In this document: one piece after another, positions 30,293 through 32,886 of the stretch
Position numbering within the stretch: position 1 is the first letter of the stretch
Layout of the letters: the number at the start of each line of letters is the position of its first letter
Assembly: GCA_030682495.1 (NCBI GenBank)
Contig: JAUXOC010000107.1
Coordinates: 1-38,213, forward strand
Direction: 5' to 3'
DNA: 38,213 nucleotides
DNA from: Alphaproteobacteria bacterium
Lineage (GTDB): Bacteria; Pseudomonadota; Alphaproteobacteria; Micavibrionales; UBA2020
Translations under genes and position numbers: made by a program
Notes under the pieces: model-generated
Databases searched by the model: none
Told to the model about the DNA's origin: nothing
The model's input: only the letters and a program-made list of their open reading frames with translations

Positions 30293-30835
30293 TCAGGCGC
30301 TTTTTGCGGCGCTCATAATCATGATGACGCTGTTGCCTTCGGCGCGGGCATCCATTTCAACCTTGCCGACGTCGGCGAGTTCTTCCTTGATGCGGCGGAT
30401 GATGGCGTAGCCGATTTCTTTGTGTTCCGCTTCGCGGCCGCGGAACTGCATGGTGAAGCGTACCTTGTCGCCGTCTTCGAAGAAACGGCGGGCGGAGCGC
30501 AGCTTGACCTGAATATCGTGCTCTTCGATATTCGGGCGCAGCTTCAGTTCTTTTGTCAGCACGATCTTCTGGTTCTTGCGCGCGGCGGCTTCTTTTTTCT
30601 GCTGTTCATAGCGGAACTTGCCGATGTCGCCGATCTTGCACACAGGCGGTTCGGCGTTCGGCGAAATTTCAATCAGATCAAGCCCGGATTCTTCGGCGGC
30701 CACAACGGCATCGCGGACGGACATCACGCCCATCATTTCGCCTTCGGCGTCGATGACGCGCACTTTGTCAGCGCGGATCTGGTTGTTGATGCGGGGGCCG
30801 TCCTGGTGGGGCGTCGGTTTATGAAAGCTAGCGAT
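30293..30835 (-). CDS. infC: translation initiation factor IF-3 (AUC start)
   Basis: IF-3 binds the 30S subunit, prevents premature 50S joining and proofreads the initiator tRNA-start codon pair. The full protein is 180 residues, exactly the E. coli length: N-domain with GPRINNQIRADKVRVID and DLIEISPNAEPPVCKIGDIGKF, C-domain with VKLRSARRFFEDGDKVRFTMQFRGRE. The only way to include the conserved GPRIN region is to start at an ATC at 30833-30835: an in-frame TAA lies four codons upstream, no ATG, GTG, TTG, CTG or ATT occurs in frame before the GTG at 30763, and GGAGAG sits five bases upstream of the ATC. Rare start codons on infC are known to allow autoregulation by IF-3. It follows thrS; rpmI and rplT do not follow. 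Confidence 0.93.
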   Translation of the reverse strand: MASFHKPTPHQDGPRINNQIRADKVRVIDAEGEMMGVMSVRDAVVAAEESGLDLIEISPNAEPPVCKIGDIGKFRYEQQKKEAAARKNQKIVLTKELKLRPNIEEHDIQVKLRSARRFFEDGDKVRFTMQFRGREAEHKEIGYAIIRRIKEELADVGKVEMDARAEGNSVIMIMSAAKSA

Positions 30836-30924
30836 GGGATCTCTCCATTAAGTTGTCAAAAAAATATCGTCACGTTGTATCTGTCCGCCGAGCGTCTGTG
30901 CAGCGCGGGGCTGCGTGCAGACTA

Positions 30925-32886
30925 TCAGGCGGGGGGCTGTGCGTCATCCGCGATTTTACGAATAGCCACGTCAAGTGCAAGTACTTCTTGGGCATCGCTG
31001 CCAAGGCGGCGGATGGCGACTTTTTGCTCTTCCGCCTCCCGCTTGCCCACGACCCAGATTTGCGGGGTCTTTTGCAGGCTATGTTCGCGGATTTTATAGT
31101 TAATTTTCTCGTTGCGGGTATCCAGCGTGGCACGGATGCCGGCTTTTTTGAGCCCTTCCACGACCTGTTTGGCATAATCATCCGCCTCCGAGGTGATCGT
31201 CGCCACCACGGCCTGTACCGGCGCGAGCCAGAGCGGGAACCTTCCGGCATGGTGTTCGATCAGGATACCGATAAACCGCTCCAGCGAGCCGAGAATGGCG
31301 CGGTGGAGCATGACAGGACGGTGACGCTGGCTGTCTTCGCCGATATAACTGGCGTCCAGACGTTCGGGCAAGTTGAAGTCGAGCTGCAGCGTGCCGCATT
31401 GCCATGTCCGGCCGATGGCATCGGTCAGGTGAAATTCGACTTTGGGGCCATAAAACGCCCCTTCGCCCGGCAGCTCTTCAAACGGCAGACCGGCGCCGGT
31501 CAGTGCGGCGCGCAGGGCAGCTTCGGCGCGGTCCCACACCTCATCGCTGCCGAGCCGTTCGTTCGCGCCCGGACGCAGGGCAAGCTTGACCGAGATTTTA
31601 TCAAAGCCAAGGTCGCGGTACACGCCGAGCTGCAGTTTGAAATAATCAAGCGCCTCTTGCTCGACCTGATCTTCGCGGCAGAAAATATGCGCATCGTCCT
31701 GCGTGAACTGGCGCACGCGCATAATGCCGTGCATCGCGCCGGAGGGTTCGTTGCGGTGGCAGCAGCCGAATTCCGCCATGCGGATCGGCAGGTCGCGGTA
31801 GGATTTGAGCCCCTGATTGAAAATCTGCACATGCGCGGGGCAGTTCATGGGTTTGATGCCCATTAATTTTTCACCATCGCCATGCGTGTCGCGCACTTTG
31901 AACATGTTATCGCCGTACATGTCCCAGTGGCCGGAGGCTTTGAACAGGCTGCTGTCAAACAGCTGCGGCGTCTTGACTTCCTGATACCCCGCCGCGCTGA
32001 TGCGGGCGCGGATGAAGTTTTCGAGCGCGCGCCAGATCGTATAGCCTTTGTCGTGCCAGAACACGCTGCCGACGGATTCTTCCTGCATATGGAACAAATC
32101 CATTTCACGTCCCAGCTTGCGGTGGTCGCGTTTTTCGGCTTCTTCCAGCATGGTCAGATAGGCGTCCAGTTCCTTCTGGTCGCGCCATGCCGTGCCGTAA
32201 ATGCGCTGTAATTGCGCATTATTGGAATCACCGCGCCAATAGGCGCCGGCCACTTTGGTCAGTTTGAAGGCCGCGCCGACATGTCCTGTCGAGGGCAGGT
32301 GCGGGCCGCGGCACAGGTCATACCATTTGCCTTGGCGGTAGATGCTGATGTCTTCGGTCACCGGCAGGTCGCGGATCAGCTCGGCCTTGTATTTTTCGCC
32401 GATGCCTTCGAAATGCGCCATCGCTTCGTCACGATTCCAGACTTCGCGTGTGAAGGCTTCGTTGCGCGCAATGATCTCGCGCATCTTGGCTTCGATCTTG
32501 GGGAAGTCTTCTGTTGTAAAAGGCTCGGCGCGGGCGAAGTCATAGTAAAACCCGTTATCAATGGCAGGGCCGATGGTAACCTGCGTGCCGGGGAACAGCT
32601 CCTGCACCGCCTCTGCCATCACATGCGAGGCATCGTGGCGGATCAATTCCAGCGCATCGTCCGACTTGCGGGTGACGATTTCGATCTTCGCGCTTTTGCC
32701 GATCGGGCGGGAAAGGTCGAACATCTCGCCATCCAGTTTGACCGCCAGCGCGGCCTTGGCCAGACCCGCGCCGATGGAGGCGGCCACGTCCGCGCCGGTC
32801 ACGGGCGCGGTGAAGGTCAGCACCTTCCCGTCGGGGAGGGTGAGCTGGATATCCTTCGGGCTTGCGTCCTGCGGTGCGGTTTTCAT
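30925..32886 (-). CDS. thrS: threonine-tRNA ligase
   Basis: ThrRS charges tRNA-Thr and edits mischarged Ser. The 653-residue protein has all parts: TGS domain (about 13-75), editing domain (about 80-240, with [12 protein letters not shown] and YDLCRGPHL), class II catalytic core (about 255-545) with motif 2 [11 protein letters not shown] and zinc ligands in MNCPAH, DDAHIF and the late [12 protein letters not shown] motif-3 region, and the anticodon-binding domain (about 550-650, [14 protein letters not shown] onwards). infC follows 89 bases downstream on the same strand, the conserved thrS-infC order. The gene diverges from the glycosyltransferase gene at 33081. Confidence 0.97.

What the first reader, a model, noticed from the sequence alone, without database searches (positions are those of the whole stretch)
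30833..30844. infC must start at a non-canonical AUC codon
An in-frame TAA lies four codons before the ATC, a GGAGAG ribosome site lies five bases before it, and no standard start occurs until a GTG 72 bases downstream that would delete the conserved GPRIN region. IF-3 discriminates against rare start codons, and AUU on E. coli infC gives autoregulation; here AUC appears to play the same part. Automatic annotation would probably truncate the protein to the GTG.
Basis: partly seen in the sequence, partly recalled or inferred. Interest (0 to 1): 0.5.

Follow-up and report, generated by a model that had tools for sequence, protein, structure and literature searches.

The report
AUC start codon on infC
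The gene for translation initiation factor IF3 in this bacterium begins at AUC instead of a normal start codon, probably as part of a known self-limiting control; most relatives examined also start this gene at AUA, AUC or AUU, so the case is real but belongs to a known kind.

Summary
infC lies on the minus strand: ATC at 30835-30833, in-frame TAA at 30850-30848, GGAGAG ending 5 bases before the ATC. The first ATG/GTG/TTG is a GTG 72 bases downstream that would remove 24 residues and the first 10 IF3_N positions. The assembly has one IF3_N match.

Both same-genus genomes keep ATC; the 14 family loci read have ATC (10) or ATA (4). By a fixed rule, 224 alphaproteobacterial loci start at ATA 86, ATT 70, ATC 49, NTG 7, unresolved 12; 64 other Pseudomonadota at ATT 24, ATC 23, ATA 12, GTG 1, unresolved 4. 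A similar rule on 30 rplT loci picks ATG in 27. On an IF3 tree the start changed at least 48 times among ATA/ATC/ATT and 9 times between AUH (AUA, AUC, AUU) and NTG.

Best explanation: a non-AUG start that IF3 rejects, giving feedback on its own synthesis. This is known (AUU in E. coli, ATC in Streptomyces, AUA in S. aureus). Feedback in this organism is inferred. Annotation is mixed: some public records already use ATA or ATT, others NTG. New member of a known kind.

The parts
30293..30835 (-). infC coding sequence (IF3, 180 codons plus stop), read from the ATC
   Evidence: IF3_N and IF3_C, TIGR00168 equivalog 211.3 bits against a cut-off of 60; only IF3_N match in the assembly
30833..30835 (-). 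ATC start codon
   Evidence: sequence; ATC or ATA at the aligned place in the 14 family loci read, own included
30841..30846 (-). Shine-Dalgarno sequence GGAGAG
   Evidence: sequence; scored GGAG at aligned spacing 6
30848..30850 (-). in-frame TAA that closes the frame upstream
   Evidence: sequence
30761..30763 (-). GTG, first standard start codon in frame; judged not to be the start
   Evidence: loss of IF3_N positions 1-10
30836..30924 (-). thrS-infC intergenic leader; no fold beyond chance and no Rfam match
   Evidence: fold of 30924-30790, z -0.07; no Rfam match at gathering score in the window
30925..32886 (-). thrS, upstream gene on the same strand, ATG start; named from its sequence and position by recall, not by a family search
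   Evidence: open frame; start codon

Best explanation
infC is translated from AUC, with initiator fMet-tRNA, at a good ribosome-binding site. Because IF3 destabilises initiation complexes on codons other than NUG, a surplus of IF3 lowers its own synthesis and a shortage raises it. Selection appears to keep the codon in the set AUA/AUC/AUU and to disfavour AUG. Shown here: the anatomy, the absence of any standard start before the conserved domain, and the conservation of AUH with an interchangeable third base. Inferred from work on E. coli and others: the IF3 feedback itself.
For: Anatomy. Family: 10 ATC and 4 ATA among 14 distinct loci, no NTG; the 14 are those read of 16 family genomes with a match, 18 searched. 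Class: 205 of 224 AUH by rule; phylum outside the class: 59 of 64, or 55 of 64 when the start must lie 8-26 codons before the conserved N. With a stricter rule (run of 5 or more, same offsets) alpha gives 165 AUH, 4 NTG, 55 unassigned of 224. In 86 of 224 alpha loci and 35 of 64 others no ATG, GTG, TTG or CTG occurs between the in-frame stop (or 60 codons back) and 6 codons before the conserved N. rplT control: all 30 loci have an ATG at the start; the rule picks ATG in 27, nothing in 2, a wrong ATA in 1. Start codons do not follow isoleucine codon usage: ATA is 87 of 203 starts but 103 of 2171 internal Ile codons. At least 48 changes among ATA/ATC/ATT on the tree against 9 between AUH and NTG. 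Papers, passages seen: PMC5472188 (IF3 represses noncanonical starts; infC ATT in E. coli, ATC in Streptomyces), PMC13009471 (S. aureus infC AUA by Ribo-Ret), PMC5559785 (Xanthomonas ATT with upstream peptides).
Against: No expression, peptide or reporter data exist here for this organism. Eleven of 224 alpha loci (10 labelled by hand, 1 by rule) use or seem to use ATG, TTG or GTG, and 9 stay unassigned; the 11 include all 3 loci read of family f119, so the arrangement is not universal. In 16 of 224 alpha and 2 of 64 other loci an NTG codon also has Shine-Dalgarno support beside the AUH one, and in 5 loci (L011, L020, L095, L266, L281) an in-frame ATG lies 2 or 3 codons before the AUH codon, very close to the Shine-Dalgarno sequence. 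AUH conservation would also fit selection for a merely weak start without feedback. The 16S tail could not be checked: an exact pattern for it had no match in this assembly.
Confidence: 0.78

Rival explanations
1. The non-AUG codon simply sets a low, constant translation rate for IF3; there is no feedback by IF3 in this organism.
For: Conservation alone cannot separate a weak start from a feedback start. In S. aureus three other AUH-started genes gave about 10% of AUG expression in poor medium (PMC13009471 passage).
Against: The gene that keeps AUH so widely is the gene of the very factor that rejects such codons, and feedback is stated in the literature for E. coli (PMC5472188 passage; PMC5559785 passage).
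Confidence: 0.19
2. Translation starts at the GTG at 30763 and the protein is a shortened IF3.
For: It is the first standard start codon; a truncation of this sort is seen in the annotation of A. lipoferum 4B.
Against: It removes the first 10 IF3_N positions; the stretch before it, with GPRIN-like residues, is kept in relatives; the AUH and its Shine-Dalgarno sequence are conserved.
Confidence: 0.02
3. Sequencing or assembly error: the codon is really ATG.
For: The window is from a 109-contig assembly.
Against: Same ATC in the two other genomes of the genus and AUH in the 14 family loci read.
Confidence: 0.005

Closest known systems
E. coli infC AUU start and IF3 autocontrol
   Same: Same gene, non-NUG start behind a Shine-Dalgarno sequence, thrS upstream (E. 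coli infC read here on a plasmid-collection record)
   Different: AUC instead of AUU; rpmI follows infC in E. coli, whereas here the next clear open frames downstream lie on the other strand and rplT is on another contig; rpmI itself was not searched for; feedback not tested
Streptomyces infC ATC start (PMC5472188, passages)
   Same: Same gene and same codon
   Different: Different phylum; in two other Actinomycetota read here (L345, L349) the ATC lies 7 codons before the conserved N, in the window 16
S. aureus infC AUA start (PMC13009471, passages)
   Same: AUH start of infC, there shown by Ribo-Ret
   Different: Different codon and phylum; experimental there, sequence only here

Membership tests
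infC genes with a non-AUG (AUH) start | gene encodes IF3 | tested here: met
   TIGR00168 211.3 bits, cut-off 60
infC genes with a non-AUG (AUH) start | no in-frame standard start upstream of the IF3_N domain | tested here: met
infC genes with a non-AUG (AUH) start | Shine-Dalgarno sequence at proper spacing from the AUH codon | tested here: met
   GGAG, aligned spacing 6
infC genes with a non-AUG (AUH) start | AUH conserved in relatives | tested here: met
IF3 autogenous control (E. coli type) | IF3 represses its own translation through the start codon | not testable with these tools
   needs reporter fusions and altered IF3 levels
IF3 autogenous control (E. coli type) | initiation occurs at the AUH codon in the cell | not testable with these tools
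   needs N-terminal peptides or initiation profiling

The most novel reading that the evidence does not exclude
What is conserved is not AUU but the class 'AUH, rarely G'. In Alphaproteobacteria, and probably most bacteria that use Shine-Dalgarno sequences, infC drifts freely among AUA, AUC and AUU while AUG is disfavoured, so IF3 feedback would be an ancient bacterial circuit. Lineages with an ordinary ATG (family f119 here, the two Bacteroidota records) would be natural losses in which the circuit's worth could be measured.
Probability: 0.6. Interest if true: 0.42.

Novelty: new member of a known kind. Interest (0 to 1): 0.3.

Why it matters
It supports by comparison that a textbook E. coli control circuit probably acts across a whole class, shows which base is under selection, and warns that gene finders limited to ATG/GTG/TTG misplace the start of an essential gene. 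Lineages with ATG offer a direct test of what the feedback is worth.

Tried and rejected
Leader RNA control: no Rfam match at gathering score in the window, fold of the leader no better than shuffles (z -0.07), no terminator-like site and no promoter-like site on the minus strand in 30700-31100 (one promoter-like site on the plus strand). L20-type control is unlikely, since rplT lies on another contig. 16S tail: the exact pattern GGATCACCTCCTTT had no match in this assembly, uninformative. Out-of-frame ATG in the spacer as a decoy start: an ATG of any frame is present in 19 of 205 alpha and 3 of 59 other AUH loci (the 205 still include L055, later relabelled ATG), which I judge close to what chance would give for a spacer of that length (my estimate, not computed), and the window has none; not pursued. 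One search read the wrong frame, and the minus-strand loci were not turned; one search replaced it. One search failed (query not found) and was redone. Papers: searches, several of them capped listings (one search listed 20 of 449); no listed title or abstract start was a survey of infC starts in Alphaproteobacteria, but the library lacks most subscription journals, and an arXiv survey of genes with non-AUG starts (Gvozdjak and Samanta 2020, seen only as a reference) was not readable here. Passage searches in a Caulobacter and a Zymomonas genome-mapping paper found nothing on the infC start (PMC4117421; PMC7566282). PMC6097659 passages call the B. subtilis infC start ATT.

Full report
Observation. 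infC is read on the minus strand. The sequence is TAA TGG AGA GAT CCC ATC GCT AGC TTT ..., with TAA at 30850-30848, ATC at 30835-30833, GGAGAG at 30846-30841 and the first standard start a GTG at 30763-30761, 72 bases on. The open frame from the ATC gives 180 residues with IF3_N (profile 1-69) and IF3_C; from the GTG the IF3_N match begins at profile position 11, and the infC equivalog falls from 211.3 to 194.1 bits. The assembly (99.19% complete) has one IF3_N match, so this is most likely the working IF3 gene. The best solved IF3 chain (8jsg_A, which I take by recall to be E. coli) aligns from residue 14 of this protein onward.

Origin. The closest named relatives are metagenome-assembled Alphaproteobacteria, UBA8982 (filed as Rhodospirillaceae) and Micavibrio sp. 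UBA2020 (91 and 90% identity).

Relatives. Both other genomes of the genus have ATC, and the 14 distinct family loci read have ATC (10, own included) or ATA (4). I collected 302 infC loci: 238 alphaproteobacterial and 64 from other Pseudomonadota. Removing 14 duplicates left 224 and 64. A fixed rule (contiguous match of at least 4 to AAGGAGGTG at spacing 4-9, candidate codon ATG/GTG/TTG/CTG/ATA/ATC/ATT, at least 6 codons before the conserved N) gave, for the 224, ATA 86, ATT 70, ATC 49, TTG 4, ATG 3, none 12; for the 64, ATT 24, ATC 23, ATA 12, GTG 1, none 4. In 16 and 2 of these loci both an AUH and an NTG candidate had support, in 4 and 1 an NTG alone. Review of the exceptions showed the rule erring both ways: three loci called NTG are AUH by comparison with their neighbours (L103, L155, L162), and L055, called ATC far upstream, is ATG like its two family-mates, whose ATG lies beyond or outside the spacing limits of the rule. 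After hand labels for 13 loci and with starts limited to 8-26 codons before the conserved N, the alpha set reads ATA 87, ATT 69, ATC 48, ATG 7, TTG 3, GTG 1, unassigned 9, and the other set ATT 24, ATC 19, ATA 12, GTG 1, unassigned 8. In 86 of 224 and 35 of 64 loci there is no ATG, GTG, TTG or CTG codon at all before the conserved part, as in the window.

Controls. A similar rule (candidates allowed up to 1 codon before the anchor instead of 6) on rplT in 30 alphaproteobacterial loci finds ATG in 27, nothing in 2 and a wrong ATA in 1; all 30 have an ATG at the start. So the rule does not by itself make AUH starts. Third bases at the start do not follow isoleucine codon usage: ATA makes up 87 of 203 starts but 103 of 2171 internal Ile codons (chi-square 395; loci are related, so the p-value is not to be taken literally). 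On a FastTree tree of IF3 proteins that leaves out the N-terminal arm, with 271 of 288 loci labelled, the fewest changes are 48 among the three AUH codons and 9 between AUH and NTG; the tree is not rooted, so direction is not tested. Seven other long open frames of the window start with ATG (6) or TTG (1) by the mechanical longest frame.

Other phyla. From 76 plasmid-collection records with IF3 (several are chromosome-sized) I read 23, analysed with candidates allowed up to 2 codons before the conserved N. Nine are Pseudomonadota, all 9 AUH. Of the other 14, SD-backed AUH is seen in Acetoanaerobium, Anoxybacillus, Limosilactobacillus, Subdoligranulum, Tsukamurella, Nonomuraea and Fusobacterium (six of these seven at the edge of the spacing limits, 4 or 9), and weakly in Lachnospira and a Nostoc plasmid copy. 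The two Bacteroidota are annotated at ATG without a Shine-Dalgarno match, a Paenibacillus plasmid copy has GTG, Arthrobacter could not be aligned and Mesomycoplasma is unclear. Of 16 with an annotated start, 6 are annotated at AUH and 10 at NTG; in A. lipoferum 4B the annotation starts inside the domain.

Mechanism. [quoted passage not shown] coli) or ATC (Streptomyces) autoregulates (PMC5472188); S. aureus infC starts at AUA by Ribo-Ret (PMC13009471); Xanthomonas infC at ATT with upstream peptides (PMC5559785); B. subtilis AUU (PMC1805508); Listeria ATT (PMC13068326). The window fits the same circuit. Nothing that I tested in the leader suggests another control. Feedback in this organism is inferred, not shown.

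Verdict. Real, correctly read, and ordinary in kind: AUC on infC is already in print for Streptomyces. The modest addition here is that the sampled Alphaproteobacteria use AUA, AUC and AUU interchangeably and NTG rarely, with a few lineages at NTG.

Noticed in passing
L017, L022, L013, L023, L024, L027-L030 (family of the window): In 9 of the 14 family loci the spacer between Shine-Dalgarno sequence and AUH start holds an out-of-frame ATG that opens a tiny frame overlapping the infC start (ATG TAA in L017 and L022; 4 to 10 codons in the rest). Absent in the window; overall an ATG of any frame in 19 of 205 alpha loci.
   Followed up: partly
L040, L055, L074 (family code f119): All three loci read have, by eye, an ordinary ATG on infC with a different N-terminal arm, in genomes of 2.9 to 3.8 Mb; a possible loss of the AUH start, direction not tested.
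   Followed up: partly
L347 (Paenibacillus polymyxa pSC2, NC_014628.2) and L353 (Nostoc sp. HK-01 plasmid2): IF3 genes annotated on plasmids, presumably second copies (not checked); the Paenibacillus one starts at GTG.
   Followed up: no
hits H82 and H83 (Vibrio phage records MK672802.1, MK672805.1): Phage records that hold an annotated translation initiation factor matching IF3; could be flanking host DNA or a phage-borne copy.
   Followed up: no
L334 and L336 (Azospirillum plasmids): infC of Azospirillum is annotated on plasmid records (rpsU is beside it in L334); 15 of the 76 plasmid records with IF3 are Azospirillum.
   Followed up: no
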